Source: an uncultured Eubacteriaceae bacterium
GTDB lineage: Bacteria > Bacillota > Clostridia > Peptostreptococcales > Anaerovoracaceae
Direction: 5' to 3'
DNA: 39,450 nt
Assembly: GCA_903789635.1 (NCBI GenBank)
Contig: CAIFEY010000010.1
Coordinates: forward strand, 1-39,450
Shown: in pieces, positions 444 through 14,106 of the stretch
How positions within the stretch are numbered: position 1 is the first letter of the stretch
Layout: every line of letters starts with the position of its first letter
Notes under the pieces: generated by a model
What the model was told of the DNA's origin: nothing
Databases searched by the model: none
What the model saw: the letters and a program-made list of their open reading frames with translations, nothing else
Program-made: the position numbers and the translations under genes

Positions 444-504
444 AATTTATATTCATTCCCCGCACGGCTTTACCCCGGCGGGATTATATAAGGAAGCGAA
501 CACC

Positions 505-945
505 ATGGCTAAATCCGAATACAAAACCAAACAGAAGGACGCAATCCTCGACTTTCTGCGGGATCACCCGGGGAAGCACGTGACGGCGAGCTCGCTGCAG
601 CGTCTGCTCGAGGACGAGGGCAAGCACATCGGCATCACGACGATCTACCGCACGCTCGACCGGCTCGTCGCGGAGGACCTGGTCCGAAAATACGAGGCGG
701 GCAGCGGCCAGAGCGCCTGCTACGAGTACATGAATGAGGAGACGCGGTGCCATCCCGGCGAGTACCACATGCGCTGCGAGCTCTGCGGCCGCCTGATCCA
801 CCTGCACTGCGACGAGATGAAGAAGATCACCGACCACATCCAGGAGGGCCACGGCTTCACCCTCGACCCTGGGCGGACGGTGCTGTACGGAATCTGTGCC
901 GACTGCCGCAGAAAGGAGCAGCAGACTCATGAACACGAGAAATAA
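505..945 (+). CDS. zur: Fur-family metal-responsive repressor, probably Zur
   Basis: This 146-residue protein has the Fur-family layout. An N-terminal winged helix (about 1-80, recognition helix around TTIYRTLDRL at 45-54) is followed by a metal-binding and dimer domain with paired CxxC motifs (C91/C94 and C131/C134), the usual structural zinc site. A His-rich tail (THEHE, 141-145) ends it. I chose ATG 505 because it starts at the conserved MAKSEYKTKQ sequence; the longer open frame from 394 would begin inside the promoter. It overlaps the ZnuA-like gene by 17 bases and heads the znuACB-type operon, so zinc sensing is the most likely role; PerR or Fur function is less likely from context. Confidence 0.85.
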   Translation: MAKSEYKTKQKDAILDFLRDHPGKHVTASSLQRLLEDEGKHIGITTIYRTLDRLVAEDLVRKYEAGSGQSACYEYMNEETRCHPGEYHMRCELCGRLIHLHCDEMKKITDHIQEGHGFTLDPGRTVLYGICADCRRKEQQTHEHEK

Positions 946-2020
946 TCCGGCAGGCCCGATCCGGCGCCTCGCCGTCCTCCTGCTCTGCGCCCTCGTCGCC
1001 GTCACGCTCTTCTCCTGTTCCTCAGGACAAAGCAAAAGCGGCAAGTCCGCAAACTCCTCTGCCGCGCAGACTTCTTCGTCAGAAAGCACCTCCGGCAGTT
1101 CATCGGGCAGTTCATCTGGAAACTCATCCGGGAATTCATCAGGTTCCGCGCATAAGCTGAAGATCGTCGCGACGATCTTTCCGCCATACGACTTTGCCCG
1201 CCAAATCGGGGGCAGATACGCAGACGTTGAGATGCTGCTGAAGCCGGGCGAGGAGAGCCACTCCTACGAGCCGACGCCTAAGGACATCCGCGACATCCAG
1301 AACGCGGACCTCTTCCTGTACGTCGGCGGCGACAACGACACGTGGGTCAAGCAGATCCTGGATTCCATGGGCAGCAAGGCCCCTAAGGCGATGAAGCTGA
1401 TCGACCTGACCAGCACGGTCGCGGAGGAGGAGACCGAGGGCATGCAGGAGAATCCGGGCGAGGAACACGAGCACGGCGAACACGACGCGGAGCTCGACGA
1501 ACACGTCTGGACCTCCCCGCTGAAGGCGATCGAAATCACGCAGAAGATCTCCAAAGAGATGCAGAAGCTCGATCCTGAGAACGCCGCGCACTTTAAGAAG
1601 AACACCGCGGCCTACACCGCCAAGCTCAAGCGACTCGACCGGCAGTTCCGAAAGGTCGTGAAGAACGGTAAGCGTAAGGAGATTTTATTTGCCGACCGCT
1701 TCCCTCTGCGCTACCTAACCGAGGAACTCGGCCTGAATTACTACGCCGCGTTCTCCGGCTGCTCCGCGAACAGCGAACCGAGCGCCCGCACCGTCTCCTT
1801 CCTGACAGACAAAGTCAAGCAGGACCACCTCCCGGTCGTCTTCACGATCGAGCTGTCAAACCACCAGATGGCCGACTCCATCTGCGAGGTCACCGGCGCG
1901 CGGCGCCTGACCTTCTACTCCTGCCACAACATCACGACGAAGCAGAAAGCGGCCGGCGTCACCTACCTCTCGATGATGGAGCACAACGTCAAGGTCCTGC
2001 GCGAGGCGCTGGACGACTAG
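929..2020 (+). CDS. znuA: zinc ABC transporter substrate-binding lipoprotein (ZnuA/AdcA type)
   Basis: This 363-residue protein has a lipoprotein signal peptide ending in LFSC (Cys30), a Ser/Gly-rich spacer (about 40-73), then a cluster A-I metal-binding fold beginning KLKIVATIFPPYDFARQIGG. H111 (EESHSYEP) and H192 (DEHVW) fit two family zinc ligands. Just before H192 lies an acidic His-rich loop (EEHEHGEHD, about 178-186) typical of zinc rather than manganese binders. The usual third His region reads FADRFPLRYL, with D256 where many homologues have His. The start at 929 is chosen for the AAGGAG at 912-917; an open frame from 896 lacks one. It captures zinc outside the membrane for ZnuBC. Confidence 0.9.
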   Translation: MNTRNNPAGPIRRLAVLLLCALVAVTLFSCSSGQSKSGKSANSSAAQTSSSESTSGSSSGSSSGNSSGNSSGSAHKLKIVATIFPPYDFARQIGGRYADVEMLLKPGEESHSYEPTPKDIRDIQNADLFLYVGGDNDTWVKQILDSMGSKAPKAMKLIDLTSTVAEEETEGMQENPGEEHEHGEHDAELDEHVWTSPLKAIEITQKISKEMQKLDPENAAHFKKNTAAYTAKLKRLDRQFRKVVKNGKRKEILFADRFPLRYLTEELGLNYYAAFSGCSANSEPSARTVSFLTDKVKQDHLPVVFTIELSNHQMADSICEVTGARRLTFYSCHNITTKQKAAGVTYLSMMEHNVKVLREALDD

Positions 2021-2076
2021 CGCGAACCATGGCGCGCGGCGTCATTCCAAGCGAAAGCCAAATGACGGCGGCGGCG

Positions 2077-2220
2077 CGGCTGCTTACGTCAATCAGCACC
2101 AAAACCTAGGGCACCGAAAACCGCTGCTGCACGGCTGCACGACATAAGACGCAGGACAGCGCTTCCTCGGCTGCTTACGGCAATCAGCACCATGACCGCA
2201 GGTACCGGAAACCGCCGCCG
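2077..2220. repeat. imperfect direct repeat between znuA and znuC
   Basis: Two related ~53-base units begin at 2077 and 2168 (period 91). Both start CGGCTGCTTACG and then run xCAATCAGCACC, followed by a diverged stretch ending near CCGAAAACCGC or CCGGAAACCGC. A short third match (CGGCTGCTAACGTCCAA) lies at 8611-8627. No gene is seen in the 278-base gap 2021-2298. Confidence 0.7.
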
Positions 2221-2298
2221 CGGCGTGCGGATACATAATACATGAGAAACAGGGATTACGAATCAGAGATTATATATAGTAGAAAGAAAGATGACGAA

Positions 2299-3177
2299 AT
2301 GAATTTAATCACATGTGAAAACCTTACGATGCGCTACGAGTCGAGCTTCTACGCGCTGCGGGACCTGAACTTCCGCGTGGAAAGCGGGGACTACCTCTAC
2401 ATCCTCGGCCAGAACGGCGCAGGAAAGAGCACCCTGATCAAGGGCCTCCTCCAGCTGAAAAAGCCGTCCTCCGGCACGATCACCTACGCGGACGGACTCT
2501 CCCCGAGCGACATCGGCTACCTGCCGCAGACGACGCAGGTCCAGAAGGACTTCCCGGCGAGCGTCTGGGAGGTCGTCCTGTCCGGCTGCCTGAATAAGAT
2601 GAACCGCCGCCCGTTCTACTCCCACCGCGAGAAGAAACTCGGCGCGGAGAACCTCGAGCGGATGGGCATCAGGGAGCTTAAGAACAAGTGCTTCCGCGAG
2701 CTCTCCGGCGGGCAGAAGCAGCGTGTCCTGCTCGCGCGTGCGCTTTGCGCCACGACCAGGATCCTGCTCTTAGACGAGCCTGCCGCCGGCCTGGACCCGG
2801 TTGTCACCCAGGACATGTACGAGCAGATCGACGCGATCAACAAGAAGCTCGGCATCACGATCATCATGGTCTCCCACGACATGCACGCGGCGCTGAAGTA
2901 CGCCAAGCACATCCTCCAGCTCCAGCAAAACCAGCTCTTCTACGGCACCACATCGGAATACCTCGCGAGCGACATCGGAAAGGCCTTCATCAGCGAATCC
3001 GAGGGCTCCCCGCTCACGGACCACGCCGCCGCAGGACCGGGCCTTGACACGATCGGCATGGTCACCGACGAATCCGCTGTTTCAGACAAATCAGGCCGCA
3101 GCGCCGACCCAGACACCATTGCCGACGCAGCTGCCGTCGATGCAGACAAAGAAAGGACGGACCGCGAATATGCTTAA
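2299..3177 (+). CDS. znuC: zinc ABC transporter ATP-binding protein (ZnuC type)
   Basis: This 292-residue ABC ATPase has Walker A GQNGAGKS (37-44), signature LSGGQ (135-139), Walker B ILLLDE (155-160) and the H-loop in VSHD. The YLPQ segment near 74-77 supplies the Q-loop. About 50 residues after the usual ABC end (after FISES) are Ala/Asp-rich and look disordered. I chose ATG 2299, where homology begins (MNLITCENL); an in-frame ATG at 2242 would add 19 unrelated residues, and neither start has a strong RBS. It ends 8 bases inside the permease gene, so the two are translationally coupled. It would power zinc import through ZnuB. Confidence 0.9.
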   Translation: MNLITCENLTMRYESSFYALRDLNFRVESGDYLYILGQNGAGKSTLIKGLLQLKKPSSGTITYADGLSPSDIGYLPQTTQVQKDFPASVWEVVLSGCLNKMNRRPFYSHREKKLGAENLERMGIRELKNKCFRELSGGQKQRVLLARALCATTRILLLDEPAAGLDPVVTQDMYEQIDAINKKLGITIIMVSHDMHAALKYAKHILQLQQNQLFYGTTSEYLASDIGKAFISESEGSPLTDHAAAGPGLDTIGMVTDESAVSDKSGRSADPDTIADAAAVDADKERTDREYA

Positions 3178-3994
3178 CCTGCTGAAAGAAATGCTGACTT
3201 ACCCGTTCATGGTCCGCGCCTTCGTCGCCGGAACGCTGATCGCGCTCTGCGCCGCGCTGCTCGGCGTCAGCCTGGTCCTGAAGCGCTACTCGATGATCGG
3301 CGACGGTCTCTCCCACGTCGGATTCGGCGCCCTGGCCCTGGCGACCGCGCTGAACGCAGCGCCGATGGCCGTCGCGATCCCGATCGTCGTCGCCGCTTCA
3401 GTCCTGATGCTCTGGATCGCCCAAAACAGCCGCATCAACGGTGACGCGGCCATCGCCCTGATCTCGACGGGCTCGATGGCGATCGGTGTCATGATCATCT
3501 CGATGACGAACGGCATGAACGTCGATGTATACAACTACCTGTTCGGCAGCATCCTGAGCATGTCCGGAAGCGACGTGACGCTCGCCATCTGCCTCTCCGC
3601 CGTCGTCCTGCTGCTGTTCATCCTGTTCTACAACCGGATCTTCAGTGTGACGTTCGACGAGAGCTTTGCCCGCGCGACCGGCACCAACGCCGGCTTCCTG
3701 AACATCGTGATCGCCCTGCTGACGGCCCTGGTCATCGTCCTCGGCATGCGCATGATGGGCGCCCTGCTGATCTCCGCCCTGATCGTTTTCCCGGCCCTGA
3801 CCTCGATGCGCCTTTGCAAGACCTTCCGCACCGTGATCCTCCACTCCTCGGTGATCGCCGTGGTCTGCATCTGGATCGGCCTGACCCTCTCCTACCTGTT
3901 CGGCACCCCGAGCGGCGCGAGCATCGTCATCTGCAACATCATCGCCTTCTGTGTCTACGGCCTGATCGGCCTCGCTACCAGAAAGAACGCGTAA
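3170..3994 (+). CDS. znuB: zinc ABC transporter permease (ZnuB type, ABC-3 family)
   Basis: This 274-residue polytopic membrane protein has many hydrophobic segments and the family stretch KRYSMIGDGLSHVGFGALAL near the N-terminus. Later segments (ALLISALIVFPALTS) match the ABC-3 fold that forms the zinc channel. The start at 3170 follows an AGGA 12 bases upstream and overlaps the znuC stop (TAA 3175-3177). The upstream open frame from 3044 lies inside znuC and is not used. A perfect 12-bp terminator stem follows within 15 bases, closing the operon. Confidence 0.9.
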   Translation: MLNLLKEMLTYPFMVRAFVAGTLIALCAALLGVSLVLKRYSMIGDGLSHVGFGALALATALNAAPMAVAIPIVVAASVLMLWIAQNSRINGDAAIALISTGSMAIGVMIISMTNGMNVDVYNYLFGSILSMSGSDVTLAICLSAVVLLLFILFYNRIFSVTFDESFARATGTNAGFLNIVIALLTALVIVLGMRMMGALLISALIVFPALTSMRLCKTFRTVILHSSVIAVVCIWIGLTLSYLFGTPSGASIVICNIIAFCVYGLIGLATRKNA

Positions 3995-6571: not shown

Positions 6572-8299
6572 CTAACTCTCTGTCAGCTGGGTATAACGCG
6601 CGTAGGTGCCGCCGCGTTCGAGCAGCTCGTCGTGGGTGCCCTGCTCGGTGATCACGCCGTCCTCGATGACGAGGATCTCGTCGGCATTCCTGATCGTGGA
6701 GAGCCTGTGGGCGATCGTGATCGTCGTACGGTCAACGGAGAGCTTCTCCAGGCTCTTCTGGATGTACTGCTCGCTCTCGTTGTCCAGGGCGCTCGTCGCC
6801 TCGTCCAGGATCAGGATGGACGGGTTCTTCAGGAAGATGCGGGCGATCGAGACGCGCTGCTTCTGGCCGCCGGAAAGCCTCGTGCCGCGTTCTCCGACAA
6901 ACGTGTCGTAGCCGTCCGGCAGGGACAGGATGAACTCGTGCAGGTCCGCCTCCTTGGCCGCGCGGATGATCTCCTCGTCGGACGCGCCTGGCTTGCCGTA
7001 AGCGATGTTTTCCTTGATCGTGCCGGAGAAGATGTAGACCTCCTGCTGAACGACGCCTACCGTGCTTCTCAGCGACTTCAGGCGGATCTTACGGACGTCC
7101 TGGCCGGAGATCGTGATGCTGCCGTCCGTCACGTCGTAGAAGCGCGGGATCAGGGAGCAGATCGTCGTCTTGCCGCCGCCGGACGGGCCGACCAGCGCGA
7201 TCGATTTCCCGTGCGGGACCGTGAAGTCGATGTCGTTCAGGACATCCTCGTTCTCGTCGTAACGGAACGCGACGTGGTGGAAGGCGATGTCCCCGTTCGG
7301 ATCCTTAAGGTCCTCCGCGTCCTTCGCGTCGACGATCTCCGGCTCCGCCTCGATGACCTCACAGAAGCGCTTGAAGCCGGAGAATCCCTTCTGCAGCATC
7401 TCGGTCAGCTCGACCAGGATCTGGATCGGGCTGATAAAGATGCCGATGTACAGCGCGTACATCGCGAGTCCGGTCGCCGTCATCTCGCCCTTCGCGATGA
7501 AGTAGCCGCCGAACACCAGCGTGATCAGGTACATCATGCCGATGAAGAACGTGTTTACGCTCTGGAACGTGCCCATCGCGCGGTAGTTCTTCTTCTTGGA
7601 ATGCAGAAAGGCCTCGTTGCCGCGGGAGAACTTGCGCTTCTCGATCTCCTCATTGGCGAACGCCTGGACCATGCGGATGCCGGACAGGGAATCCTGCAGG
7701 GAGGCGTTGATGTTTCCGATCTTCCTTCGGTTGTCCGTAAACGTCATCTGCATCGTCCGGTTCTGCTTGAGGCAGACGATGATCATCAGGATGACGACGG
7801 CGCCCAGGATGAACGCGAGCTTCCACTGGATCATGAACAGGAAGATGAAGGAACCGATCAGCTTCACGACGGAGATGAACAGGTTCTCCGGGCCGTGGTG
7901 CGCCATCTCCGAGATGTCGAACAGGTCCGACACCAGCTTGCTCATCATCTGCCCCGTGTTGTTCTTATCGTAATAAGAGAAGGAAAGGTGCTCGTAGTGC
8001 TCGAACAGTTCCTGGCGCATGTCGCGCTCCATCTGCGCGCCCATGATGTGGCCCTGGCAGCTGACGTAGTACTTGCACAGCGCCTGGACGATGTACGCAG
8101 CCAAAAAAGCAGCGCCCAGCAGCGGCAGCCTGTGCATGATGGTCTGGCCGTCTTTGAGAAATAGCATGTCCGTCAGCACGTTCAGGACCTGCGGGAACGC
8201 GAGGTCCACGATGCTGATGATCGCCGCACAGAACAGGTCAAAGTAGAAGACCCCTCGGTACGGCCGGTAATATTGCATAAACTTTCTGATCGTCTTCAT
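6572..8299 (-). CDS. ABC exporter, fused permease-ATPase (MsbA/LmrA type)
   Basis: This 575-residue half-transporter has a six-helix exporter domain (about 15-310) and a C-terminal ATPase. The ATPase has Walker A GPSGGGKT (371-378), Q-loop near VVQQE (417-421), signature LSGGQ (475-479), Walker B ILILDE (495-500) and H531. It would act as a homodimer exporting lipids, drugs or peptides; the substrate is not predictable. I chose ATG 8299 (MKTIRKFMQYYRPY), with GGAG 10 bases upstream; the open frame runs back to 8437, but those codons lie inside the promoter. The promoter carries a LexA-type SOS box, suggesting induction by DNA damage. It is monocistronic. Confidence 0.9.
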   Translation of the reverse strand: MKTIRKFMQYYRPYRGVFYFDLFCAAIISIVDLAFPQVLNVLTDMLFLKDGQTIMHRLPLLGAAFLAAYIVQALCKYYVSCQGHIMGAQMERDMRQELFEHYEHLSFSYYDKNNTGQMMSKLVSDLFDISEMAHHGPENLFISVVKLIGSFIFLFMIQWKLAFILGAVVILMIIVCLKQNRTMQMTFTDNRRKIGNINASLQDSLSGIRMVQAFANEEIEKRKFSRGNEAFLHSKKKNYRAMGTFQSVNTFFIGMMYLITLVFGGYFIAKGEMTATGLAMYALYIGIFISPIQILVELTEMLQKGFSGFKRFCEVIEAEPEIVDAKDAEDLKDPNGDIAFHHVAFRYDENEDVLNDIDFTVPHGKSIALVGPSGGGKTTICSLIPRFYDVTDGSITISGQDVRKIRLKSLRSTVGVVQQEVYIFSGTIKENIAYGKPGASDEEIIRAAKEADLHEFILSLPDGYDTFVGERGTRLSGGQKQRVSIARIFLKNPSILILDEATSALDNESEQYIQKSLEKLSVDRTTITIAHRLSTIRNADEILVIEDGVITEQGTHDELLERGGTYARYTQLTES

Positions 8300-8347: not shown

Positions 8348-8376
8348 ACGATAACACACGAACATGCGTTCGTCAA
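8348..8376 (-). promoter_or_regulatory. promoter of the ABC exporter
   Basis: On the minus strand TTGACG (8376-8371) and TATCGT (8353-8348) are separated by 17 bases. The predicted start near 8341 gives a ~40-base leader. Confidence 0.75.
8359..8372. promoter_or_regulatory. LexA/DinR SOS box in the exporter promoter
   Basis: CGAAC-ATGC-GTTCG fits the Gram-positive LexA box CGAAC-N4-GTTCG at every fixed position. It lies between and partly over the -35 hexamer, ideal for LexA to block RNA polymerase. This is the only such box I found in the window. Confidence 0.8.
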
Positions 8377-8800: not shown

Positions 8801-8829
8801 TTGACACTGCACGACTACAGAAGATGAAT
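8801..8829 (+). promoter_or_regulatory. possible promoter of the nuclease gene
   Basis: A perfect TTGACA (8801-8806) is followed 17 bases later by the weak -10 ATGAAT (8824-8829). If used, transcription starts after the in-frame ATG at 8824, favouring the ATG at 8875 as start. The rest of 8377-8800 shows no gene. Confidence 0.45.
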
Positions 8830-8874
8830 ACAGCGCAGTATAGTATGAAAGAAACAGAGATAAAGGAGATAGAA

Positions 8875-9996
8875 ATGAGGGATTACAGAATCGAACCGAA
8901 TGCCTCCCAGCATTCCGGGAAGCCCCGCGAGCGCCGAAAACGGGCACGCAAAGTCCTGCTGACCCTGCTCCTCGCGGCGGCCATGACGTTCACGCTGGCC
9001 GGGTGCGGGGGCTCGTCGTCCGGCAGCGGCAGCAGCAGTTCGAACTCCACACAGTCCGAGTCGCAGTCGAAATCAAATTCACAGTCCTCCGCGGCGGAAA
9101 AGGCCGAGGACGCGGTATCGGCCATCGCGGCCAGTGCATCGGGCAGCAGTGCAGGAAAGTCCTCCGGCGCGGTGGTTTTGTCCAAAATCCCGAAGTACAG
9201 CGGCAGCCCTTACGTCAAGCTGAACCACAACAAGCCGGCGTTCAAGACGTCGCAGCTGATCAAGCGGTCGTACGAGAAGTACGGGTCGCTCGACTCCCTC
9301 GGGCGCTGCACGACCTGCATCGCGAACGTCAGCCGGAGCACGATGCCGACAGCACCGCGGGGAAGCATCGGCATGATCAAGCCGACGGGATGGCATACGA
9401 TTCGCTACAGCTTTGTCGACGGGAAGTACCTCTACAACCGCTGCCACCTGATCGGCTACCAGCTGACCGGCGAGAACGCGAACAGCCGCAACCTGATCAC
9501 CGGCACGAGGTACATGAATGTCGACGGAATGGAGCCGTTCGAGTCGGAAATCGCGCAGTACGTCAAGAGCACGGGAAACCACGTTCTGTACCGCGTTACA
9601 CCGGTATTCAAGGGCAGCGATCTGCTCGCGCACGGCGTCCACATGGAGTCGGAATCGGTCGAGGACCACGGCAGCGGCATCAAATTCAACATCTACTGCT
9701 ACAACGTTGAGCCGGGAACCAAGCTCAACTACACGAACGGAAACAGCCGCGCCACGAACGGCGAATCCGGCACCTCCGGCGGCAGCACCGCGACGAACAC
9801 CGAAAGCAGCACGTCCGGCAGCACAAACGACAACGCGCGCCACTACTACGTCGTGAACGTCAACACCGGCGTCTTCCACCTGCCGTCCTGCAGCTCCGCC
9901 GCCCGCACCCTCCCTAAGAACAAGCGTACGATGCGCGTAAAGCGTTCCCTCCTGATCAGCCAGGGCTACCGCCCGTGCAAGATCTGCAATCCGTAG
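8875..9996 (+). CDS. secreted DNA/RNA non-specific endonuclease lipoprotein
   Basis: This 373-residue protein has a basic N-terminus and a lipoprotein signal ending LAGC (Cys44), a long Ser-rich linker (about 45-95), then a NucA/EndA-type beta-beta-alpha-metal nuclease. The likely general base is H191 in NRCHLIGYQL, where classic enzymes read DRGH; N206 in SRNLITGTRYMN fits the metal ligand. After a Ser/Thr/Gly linker comes a small C-terminal module (about 323-373) with FHLPSC and GYRPCKICNP, resembling the Ada-like zinc-binding domain found on surface nucleases. AAAGGAG 6 bases upstream selects ATG 8875. It would degrade extracellular nucleic acids or help DNA uptake at the cell surface. Confidence 0.87.
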   Translation: MRDYRIEPNASQHSGKPRERRKRARKVLLTLLLAAAMTFTLAGCGGSSSGSGSSSSNSTQSESQSKSNSQSSAAEKAEDAVSAIAASASGSSAGKSSGAVVLSKIPKYSGSPYVKLNHNKPAFKTSQLIKRSYEKYGSLDSLGRCTTCIANVSRSTMPTAPRGSIGMIKPTGWHTIRYSFVDGKYLYNRCHLIGYQLTGENANSRNLITGTRYMNVDGMEPFESEIAQYVKSTGNHVLYRVTPVFKGSDLLAHGVHMESESVEDHGSGIKFNIYCYNVEPGTKLNYTNGNSRATNGESGTSGGSTATNTESSTSGSTNDNARHYYVVNVNTGVFHLPSCSSAARTLPKNKRTMRVKRSLLISQGYRPCKICNP

Positions 9997-10200: not shown

Positions 10201-11856
10201 CTACAGCGCATCGACATCCACGGCTCCGACGGCGGCCTTTCTCATGTCGTCGTTCGGGTTGACCTTGCGGAGGACCAGCAGCACCGCGATGGTGATGATG
10301 ATTCCTGCCGGGAGGGAGATCCACGCGCTTCTGGTGAATCCCGCAATGACGTAAGTGACGCAGGAGATAACTGCGACGGTCATCGCGTACGGCAGCTGTG
10401 TGGATACGTGGTTCATGTGGTAGCACTGCGCACCGGCAGAGGACATGATCGTCGTATCAGAGATCGGTGAGCAGTGGTCTCCACAGACGGCTCCTGCCAT
10501 GCAGGCGGAGACTGCGATGATCATCAGGTGATAGTCCGTGTTTCCGAAGATGCCGGTTACGATCGGGATCAGGATTCCGAACGTTCCCCAGGAAGTTCCG
10601 GTTGCGAACGACAGGATGCATCCGATGATGAATACGACTGCCGGCAGCAGGGACATGTAGCTGGACGCATAAGTCTGTACGAAGTTCTTTACGAAAACGG
10701 TGGAACCGAGGCTGTCGGTCATCGCCTTCAGGGACCATGCGAAAGTCAGAATCAGGATCGGGGCAACCATGGCCTTGAATCCCTCAGGAACGCAGTCCAT
10801 GAACTCCTCGAACGACATGATGTGACGCGCCATGTAGAAAATCAGCGTGAATACCAGGGCAAAGAACGAACCGTAAGCCAGTCCTACGGACGCATCACTT
10901 CCCGCAAACGCCTCGATGATCGAGCTTCCGGAGAAGAATCCGCCGGTGTAAATCATGCCCAGTACGCAGAAGATGATCAGGACGATGATCGGAATGACCA
11001 TGTCACCGACGGTTCCCCTGCTGTTCGGGATGTCGGACTCCTCCGGGTACGGACGCTCAGGCGTAGTGTACAGGTCGTTGTTGTGGATCGCGTTGAACTC
11101 GTGCTTTACCATCGGTCCGAAGTCCGTCTGCGTCATGACGAGCGAGAACATGAAGACGATGGTCAGCAGTGCGTAGAAGTTGTACGGGATGCACTGGATG
11201 AATACGGTGAAGCCGTTGTGGCCCTTTACCATTCCGGATACTGCGGCTGCCCAGGATGAAATCGGGGCGATGACGCAGATCGGCGCAGCCGTCGCATCGA
11301 TCAGGTATGCGAGCTTAGCGCGGGATACGTGATGGTGGTCGGTGATCGGACGCATGACCGAACCTACGGTCAGGCAGTTGAAATAGTCGTCGATGAAGAT
11401 CAGGATGCCGAGCACGATCGTCGCGAGCAGCGCTCCTCTTCTCTTCTTGATGTGCTTGGACGCCCATTTTCCGAATGCAGCGGAACCTCCGGCCTTATTC
11501 ATCAGCGCGACCAGCACGCCGAGGATGACCAGGAAGATCAAAATTCCTACATTATAACTGTCGGTCAGCGACGCCAGGAGTCCGTCCTTGTAGACGTGAT
11601 TCATCGTGCCGGTGAAGCTGAATCCGGAATACAGCAGTCCGCCTGCAATGATTCCGATGAACAGGGAACTGTATACCTCTTTAGTGACGAGCGCGAGCCC
11701 GATCGCGATGATCGGCGGTACCAGCGCCCAGGCGGAATTTCTTGCGCTGTCCTTGGTCGTGACCATGGCCGCGATGACCAGGAATACGACGACGACGGCG
11801 AAGGCGATCAGATTGGCGATGCCGCGCCTGCTAATCTTTTCTCTCTGATTACTCAT
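10201..11856 (-). CDS. NhaC-family transporter, predicted lysine importer
   Basis: This 551-residue membrane protein has about a dozen hydrophobic segments and NhaC-family features, including FIDDYFNCLTVGSVMRPITD and GDHCSPISDTTIMSS. By family alone it would be called a Na+/H+ antiporter. However, its leader carries a lysine riboswitch plus attenuator, and NhaC-like proteins under such riboswitches have been predicted to carry lysine (LysW type). I therefore call it a probable lysine transporter. The start is ATG 11856, with AGGAG 10 bases upstream; an in-frame TTG at 11862 would be too close to the RBS. Monocistronic. Confidence 0.85.
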   Translation of the reverse strand: MSNQREKISRRGIANLIAFAVVVVFLVIAAMVTTKDSARNSAWALVPPIIAIGLALVTKEVYSSLFIGIIAGGLLYSGFSFTGTMNHVYKDGLLASLTDSYNVGILIFLVILGVLVALMNKAGGSAAFGKWASKHIKKRRGALLATIVLGILIFIDDYFNCLTVGSVMRPITDHHHVSRAKLAYLIDATAAPICVIAPISSWAAAVSGMVKGHNGFTVFIQCIPYNFYALLTIVFMFSLVMTQTDFGPMVKHEFNAIHNNDLYTTPERPYPEESDIPNSRGTVGDMVIPIIVLIIFCVLGMIYTGGFFSGSSIIEAFAGSDASVGLAYGSFFALVFTLIFYMARHIMSFEEFMDCVPEGFKAMVAPILILTFAWSLKAMTDSLGSTVFVKNFVQTYASSYMSLLPAVVFIIGCILSFATGTSWGTFGILIPIVTGIFGNTDYHLMIIAVSACMAGAVCGDHCSPISDTTIMSSAGAQCYHMNHVSTQLPYAMTVAVISCVTYVIAGFTRSAWISLPAGIIITIAVLLVLRKVNPNDDMRKAAVGAVDVDAL

Positions 11857-11894
11857 GAGCAATCTACTCCTCTCTCTTTCAGCAGAAACTCGAT

Positions 11895-13131: not shown

Positions 13132-14106
13132 CTACCGCATCTGCGCATAGATCATGCGCTGGAAGTCGGAAGCTGCGCGCTTAGGGCTCTTGATCTGGAT
13201 CTTGCCGCCGAACTTGAACACCCATGCGTAGAACGAAGGTCCTAACTGGGCCTGTGCCGTGACCTGGAAGCGGTTGCGGCTGATCGTGTGCGTGCTCACG
13301 TTCTCTCCGAACTTGGCGATGATCTCGTTCATGACGGAGTTCTCGCAGAGCAGCTGGACGGAAGCCGTCTCAGTGCTGAACGGATCAAAGATACGGTCTC
13401 TGTACTCCATCAGGTCCATGTCCTCCGGAAGCTTATCGCCGTCCTCCTCCAGGACCTCGACGTTCTCCAGGCGCTCGGCGCGGAATTCCGCGATTCCCTG
13501 GAGCTTCTCCAGCCAAGCGATCAGGTGACATCCGGACTCGTCGCACCAGAATGCGTACGGCGTTGCCTTGTACACCTCGCCGTCGTGGCGCAGAACCTTC
13601 TCCTTGTCCGGCGTGTACTCCGCGTAGCAGAACAGGATCTTCTTTCCGCGGTCGATCGCCTCGCTGACTGCCTCATACTCTGCAAGCTCAAGGGATTCAT
13701 CGCGATGAGCGTGGCGCAGAACCGAGACGTGGCTCATCAGAGCCTCCTCCTGGTAGCAGCTTCCCATCTTTGTGATCTTACGCGTCAGATCTTCCGCATC
13801 CTTGTCCGTCAATAGCGGCGAAGACAGGATAACGTCCTTCAGGAGCTTCATCTCGTCGAACGTCAGAGCGTGCTCCTCAAGGTAATAGCGGTTCGGCGAA
13901 CTCTTCATGAAAACGATCTTGTAACCGATCTCCATGAGCAGGCTCATGTCGGTTTTGATCGTCTTCCTCTCCGCTGTCATACCTAAAGAGTTAATATAAT
14001 CCAGGATCTCGTTGGTCGTAACCGGGTGATCCTTGTCCGTCTTCTCATACAACAGTTTCAGGATGTACAAGAGTCTCGCCTTCTTGATATTCGTGTTCTC
14101 AAGCAT
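13132..14106 (-). CDS. WYL-domain transcriptional regulator
   Basis: This 324-residue protein has an N-terminal winged helix (about 1-75; TTNEILDYINSLGMTAERKTIKTD fits a DeoR-like HTH, given here across positions 30-53). A middle region (about 80-130) is followed by a WYL ligand-sensing domain (about 145-230; ILFCYAEYTPDKE, YAFWCDESGCHLIAW) and a C-terminal WCX-like extension (KFGENVSTHTI to the end). Such proteins regulate nearby genes in response to small ligands or nucleic acids. GGAGGG 11 bases upstream supports ATG 14106. The coupled phosphatase is the only operon partner, so the target is unknown. Confidence 0.85.
   Translation of the reverse strand: MLENTNIKKARLLYILKLLYEKTDKDHPVTTNEILDYINSLGMTAERKTIKTDMSLLMEIGYKIVFMKSSPNRYYLEEHALTFDEMKLLKDVILSSPLLTDKDAEDLTRKITKMGSCYQEEALMSHVSVLRHAHRDESLELAEYEAVSEAIDRGKKILFCYAEYTPDKEKVLRHDGEVYKATPYAFWCDESGCHLIAWLEKLQGIAEFRAERLENVEVLEEDGDKLPEDMDLMEYRDRIFDPFSTETASVQLLCENSVMNEIIAKFGENVSTHTISRNRFQVTAQAQLGPSFYAWVFKFGGKIQIKSPKRAASDFQRMIYAQMR

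What the first reader, a model, noticed from the sequence alone, without database searches (positions are those of the whole stretch)
8348..8376. DNA-damage (LexA) control of an ABC exporter
A perfect Gram-positive LexA box CGAAC-ATGC-GTTCG lies between the -35 and -10 of the ABC exporter promoter. SOS regulons normally hold repair genes; a multidrug-type exporter under LexA suggests export of a DNA-damaging compound, a bacteriocin or a damage product. The box, promoter spacing and gene orientation are read from sequence; LexA binding is from the known consensus.
Basis: partly seen in the sequence, partly recalled or inferred. Interest (0 to 1): 0.75.

Follow-up and report, generated by a model that had tools for sequence, protein, structure and literature searches.

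The report
SOS-type LexA operator before ABC exporter
In one unnamed bacterium a drug-pump-like exporter gene has what looks like a DNA-damage control switch built into its promoter, so the pump is probably part of that bacterium's DNA-damage response, although related pumps elsewhere lack the switch.

Summary
CGAACATGCGTTCG lies at 8359-8372, inside the 17-nt spacer of a promoter-like site (TTGACG-17-TATCGT, minus strand) that ends 48 nt before the start of a half-size ABC exporter (ATG at 8299). The genome has a LexA with both expected domains. Its lexA, recA, ruvC, pcrA/uvrD-type and rarA-type genes carry boxes of the same type. The exporter box has the register of the ruvC box and scores like these boxes on matrices made without it. 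LexA repression is therefore likely (about 0.75); binding and induction are untested.

Against: 0 of 92 related exporter genes with readable upstream DNA has a box with 0-1 mismatches, and the motif alone is not enriched in the genome. The site looks like a lineage-specific addition; 16 same-genus genomes gave no match above 47% identity. Among the nearby genes tested, none points to a bacteriocin or genotoxin cargo. Putative LexA sites before ABC/efflux genes are already reported in C. difficile (PMC4234289, passages). New member of a known kind; modest interest.

The parts
8359..8372 (-). LexA/SOS-type operator, CGAACGCATGTTCG on the minus strand (arms ACGAAC/GTTCGT around a 4-nt centre)
8348..8376 (-). 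promoter-like site TTGACG-17-TATCGT with TG before the -10; the operator lies within it and overlaps the last base(s) of the -35
   Evidence: register compared
6572..8299 (-). ABC exporter, 575 aa: one membrane domain, one ATPase domain; Walker A, LSGGQ, Walker B with DE, H-loop present

Best explanation
The exporter promoter is a LexA-repressed SOS promoter. LexA binds the operator between -35 and -10 and keeps RNA polymerase off; after DNA damage, RecA-stimulated LexA self-cleavage frees the promoter and the exporter is made. The exporter is most likely a homodimeric Sav1866/MsbA-like multidrug-type pump that removes amphipathic toxic compounds during genotoxic stress. Operator and promoter anatomy are shown; LexA binding, induction, homodimer and cargo are inferred. 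The control is probably a lineage-specific gain.
For: lexA with DNA-binding and S24 peptidase domains. Same-type boxes before lexA, recA, ruvC, a pcrA/uvrD-type helicase and a rarA-type gene of this genome. lexA promoters of 15 of 15 genus genomes with a strong lexA hit (17 searched) carry a box: 14 GAAC-N4-GTTT (one of them, L157, read from the printed context), 1 AAAC-N4-GTTT. Exporter and ruvC promoters share the 17-nt spacer and box register. Score of the exporter box 18.1 (five own boxes) or 16.1 (19 boxes); held-out own boxes score, with the same two matrices: lexA 13.2/21.5, recA 16.8/17.1, pcrA 18.0/16.9, ruvC 10.3/15.1, rarA 15.5/12.4; 0 and 3 of 3,000,000 random 16-mers reach the exporter score. 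GAACRNRYGTTY gives 48 strand counts in the genome against 20 for the reversed pattern. Two perfect boxes in relatives stand before small LysM-domain genes, a trait recalled for the SOS division inhibitor YneA.
Against: No related exporter has the box. GAAC-N4-GTTC is not enriched (29 places against 28). CGAACRNRYGTTCG gives fewer strand counts than its reversed control in the 60 genomes other than G029 (14 against 28). With the 19-box matrix about 2.6 equal-scoring sites per genome are expected by chance, and the site inside the fmt coding sequence scores 19.6, higher than the exporter box (13.9 with the five-box matrix). No box in the 500 nt before the uvrB match. No binding or expression data.
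Confidence: 0.75

Rival explanations
1. The box is a chance match; the exporter is constitutive or otherwise regulated.
For: The motif is not enriched as such; 10 of 100 shuffled windows hold one; a coding-sequence site scores as high; relatives lack it.
Against: Position in the promoter spacer, in the register of ruvC, and a score like the genome's SOS boxes.
Confidence: 0.17
2. The palindrome is the operator of another repressor, for example a TetR- or MarR-type drug sensor, that resembles a LexA box.
For: Exporters of this class are often under local drug-sensing repressors (general knowledge).
Against: No TetR- or MarR-type gene among the 11 window proteins tested (a FUR-type regulator at 502-945 and a WYL-domain protein at 13132-14106 are the only regulator-like ones, both about 5 kb or more away). 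The box fits the LexA matrices.
Confidence: 0.08
3. The exporter is a dedicated secretion pump for an SOS-induced bacteriocin or genotoxin (a statement on cargo; it can hold together with LexA control).
For: SOS control of bacteriocins is known elsewhere (recalled); the protein matches bacteriocin-exporter models, far below their cut-offs.
Against: No peptidase domain; no biosynthesis family among the window proteins tested; no widely shared neighbour in 50 related loci. Short precursor ORFs were not searched for.
Confidence: 0.05

Closest known systems
LexA regulon of Clostridioides difficile (PMC4234289, passages seen)
   Same: Putative LexA operators before several ABC transporter genes and a putative multidrug efflux gene, LexA interaction tested by SPR
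   Different: The efflux-gene operator there is degenerate, at -138, and described as low-association, non-stable binding; here both arms are perfect and sit in the promoter spacer
LexA regulon of Streptomyces venezuelae (PMC9380542, passages seen)
   Same: lists an ABC transporter permease gene with a LexA-type site at -30
   Different: a permease listed under metabolism, not a fused half-size exporter; one arm of the site is degenerate
Gram-positive (B. subtilis type) LexA box
   Same: CGAAC-N4-GTTCG (consensus recalled; local boxes)
   Different: nothing in the motif; the target gene is unusual
Sav1866 / MsbA-type half-size exporters
   Same: one membrane plus one ATPase domain, near full-length match
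   Different: below the cut-off of each of the 25 NCBIfam models shown (of 187 matched); substrate unknown

Membership tests
LexA-controlled SOS gene | a LexA-type operator in the promoter | tested here: met
LexA-controlled SOS gene | the genome encodes LexA and its core SOS promoters use the same operator type | tested here: met
   exception: no box found before uvrB
LexA-controlled SOS gene | operator conserved in related promoters (supporting, not defining: regulons turn over) | tested here: not met
   0 of 92 related genes with 0-1 mismatches within 400 nt
LexA-controlled SOS gene | LexA binds the site and DNA damage induces the gene | not testable with these tools
   needs gel shift and RNA data; therefore filed as a probable, not a shown, member
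ABCB/MsbA/Sav1866-like ABC exporter | ABC_membrane plus ABC_tran domains and intact ATPase motifs | tested here: met
Peptidase-containing bacteriocin exporter | N-terminal C39 peptidase domain | tested here: not met
   no peptidase family in the Pfam scan

The most novel reading that the evidence does not exclude
A horizontally gained exporter was wired into the SOS response by gain of a perfect operator in its promoter, so that this bacterium pumps out genotoxins once its DNA is being damaged: efflux switched on by damage sensing instead of drug sensing.
Probability: 0.3. Interest if true: 0.55.

Novelty: new member of a known kind. Interest (0 to 1): 0.35.

Why it matters
If true, DNA damage would raise efflux directly in this bacterium, linking the SOS response to tolerance of toxic compounds, and would show how readily a single gene can be added to the SOS regulon.

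Tried and rejected
Bacteriocin or genotoxin export: family scans of 11 window proteins, the exporter included (all within 1-14.1 kb), and a search for shared neighbours in 50 related loci plus the window. Apart from the exporter itself, the largest of the 14 clusters printed spans 5 loci. The Na+/H+ antiporter-like gene at 10201-11862 has relatives in 3 of the 50 loci, on the strand opposite to the exporter there; I give this no weight. Not examined: ORFs beyond 14.1 kb, and short ORFs as peptide precursors.

Virus carriage: the IMG/VR scan found no relative of the exporter. The plasmid and phage collections were not searched. No tree was built, so horizontal gain is inference.

Literature: seven full-text searches and 'find' passages in four papers: PMC4234289, PMC3998124 ('transporter' and 'efflux' do not occur in its main text, supplements not read), PMC9380542, PMC3828012 (no exporter in its LexA set as passages show it). 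No claim is made that LexA-controlled exporters are absent from print.

Errors of mine: the script stopped half-way on a wrong file name; one search read 8 minus-oriented lexA loci on the wrong strand and was redone. The ORF caller is mechanical (longest ORFs first), so 'inside an ORF' is not proof of coding.

Full report
Observation. The sequence at 8359-8372 is CGAACATGCGTTCG. On the minus strand the region reads TTGACGAACGCATGTTCGTGTGTTATCGT: TTGACG-17-TATCGT with TG before the -10. The exporter starts at the ATG at 8299 (many homologues align from this residue), 48 nt after the -10. The window is contig C10:1-39450 of a 2.64 Mb, 77-contig genome.

Chance. One perfect site is in the window, 0.10 expected. 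Genome-wide CGAAC-N4-GTTCG has 2 places, as has the reversed control; the other lies within fmt. GAAC-N4-GTTC has 29 places against 28. GAACRNRYGTTY has 48 strand counts against 20. In 61 genomes CGAACRNRYGTTCG is found in 9; leaving out G029, 14 strand counts stand against 28 for the control; G029 alone has 28 against 6. Of the 10 distinct sites outside G029, 6 lie outside every ORF called; 2 more lie inside a called ORF but upstream of the likely gene start (the exporter site, and L147, 23 nt before a LysM gene); 2 lie inside ORFs. Of the 15 G029 sites 9 were fetched, and all 9 lie inside called ORFs, one (L151) at its very 5' edge. So letters alone do not prove the site; place and context speak for it.

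The genome's own SOS system. One lexA was found, with LexA DNA-binding and S24 peptidase domains. The strict pattern hits the regions before lexA, recA, ruvC, a pcrA/uvrD-type helicase (ORF cut by the locus end) and a rarA-type ATPase. It also hits many places inside ORFs and some before genes with no SOS link known to me, such as a 3-hydroxyacyl-CoA dehydrogenase and a serine dehydratase alpha chain gene. In 15 of 15 genus genomes with a strong lexA hit (17 searched, two with weak hits only) the lexA promoter carries a box. No box was found in the 500 nt before the uvrB match.

Architecture. In the exporter and ruvC promoters the 12-nt box core begins 5 nt after the start of the -35 and the spacer is 17 nt. 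In rarA it begins 7 nt after, with an 18-nt spacer; in pcrA, lexA and recA the placement differs (2, -9 and 37 nt). On symmetric matrices built without the exporter box it scores 18.1 (five own boxes) or 16.1 (19 boxes), within the range of held-out SOS boxes (10.3-18.0 for the five own boxes with the first matrix; 12.4-22.8 for all 19 with the second). The site within fmt scores 13.9 and 19.6, so the second matrix ranks it above the exporter site.

Conservation. Exporter relatives came from 61 relatives (29 of 61 genomes at E up to 1e-120, own genome included), from named genomes (66 loci) and from 349 family genomes (6 of 349 at E up to 1e-195, own genome included). Of 99 loci given to, 4 had no match at E 1e-60 and 3 too little upstream DNA. 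In the other 92 the best match to CGAACRNRYGTTYG within 400 nt has 2 mismatches in 2 loci (the same sequence, 224 nt upstream), 3 in 14, 4 in 62 and 5 in 14. 42 of the 92 are at least 60% identical to the query; 50 are below and may be paralogues; a few loci may be one genome seen twice. In one search (60 of these loci, 300 nt, CGAAC-N4-GTTCG) the best was 2 mismatches, in 4 loci, while the reversed control reached 1 mismatch in 2. The 16 same-genus genomes, some incomplete, gave no match above 47% identity, while named genomes hold relatives of up to 72% identity. Horizontal gain followed by local gain of the operator is the simplest reading; it is inference.

Function. The protein has one ABC_membrane and one ABC_tran domain and intact ATPase motifs. 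The best single half-transporter in the PDB table is Sav1866 (2hyd), after longer ABCB-type chains. It is below the cut-off of each of the 25 NCBIfam models shown. The cargo cannot be told from sequence. Neighbours are a divergent endonuclease-like gene (8824-9996), an antiporter-like gene, an SDR gene and a zinc-uptake-like set.

Judgement. LexA control of this exporter is likely. It would be a new SOS target of a kind already proposed in C. difficile, not a new kind of system.

Noticed in passing
window 8824-9996: Divergent gene with a DNA/RNA non-specific endonuclease domain (PF13930) and a sub-threshold Ada zinc-binding-like C-terminus; the N-terminus looks secreted or lipoprotein-like by eye.
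   Followed up: partly
window 502-3994: FUR-family regulator followed by ZnuA, ABC ATPase and ABC-3 permease genes: a probable zinc-uptake set.
   Followed up: partly
L010 (own genome C5) 1501 and 1645: Two LexA-type boxes 50 and 194 nt before a ComEC-like competence gene; possible SOS link to DNA uptake, untested.
   Followed up: no
L031 1518; L033 1492; L035 1490 and 4471 (own genome C30, C33, C35): Symmetric GAACATATGTTC sites: two upstream of genes without a known SOS role (3-hydroxyacyl-CoA dehydrogenase, PKD-type protein), one at the 5' edge of a 188-aa ORF, one inside a 79-aa ORF.
   Followed up: partly
L142, L147 (relatives G025 and G010): Perfect LexA-type boxes 26 and 23 nt from small LysM-domain genes, resembling the SOS division inhibitor YneA (YneA link recalled).
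   Followed up: no
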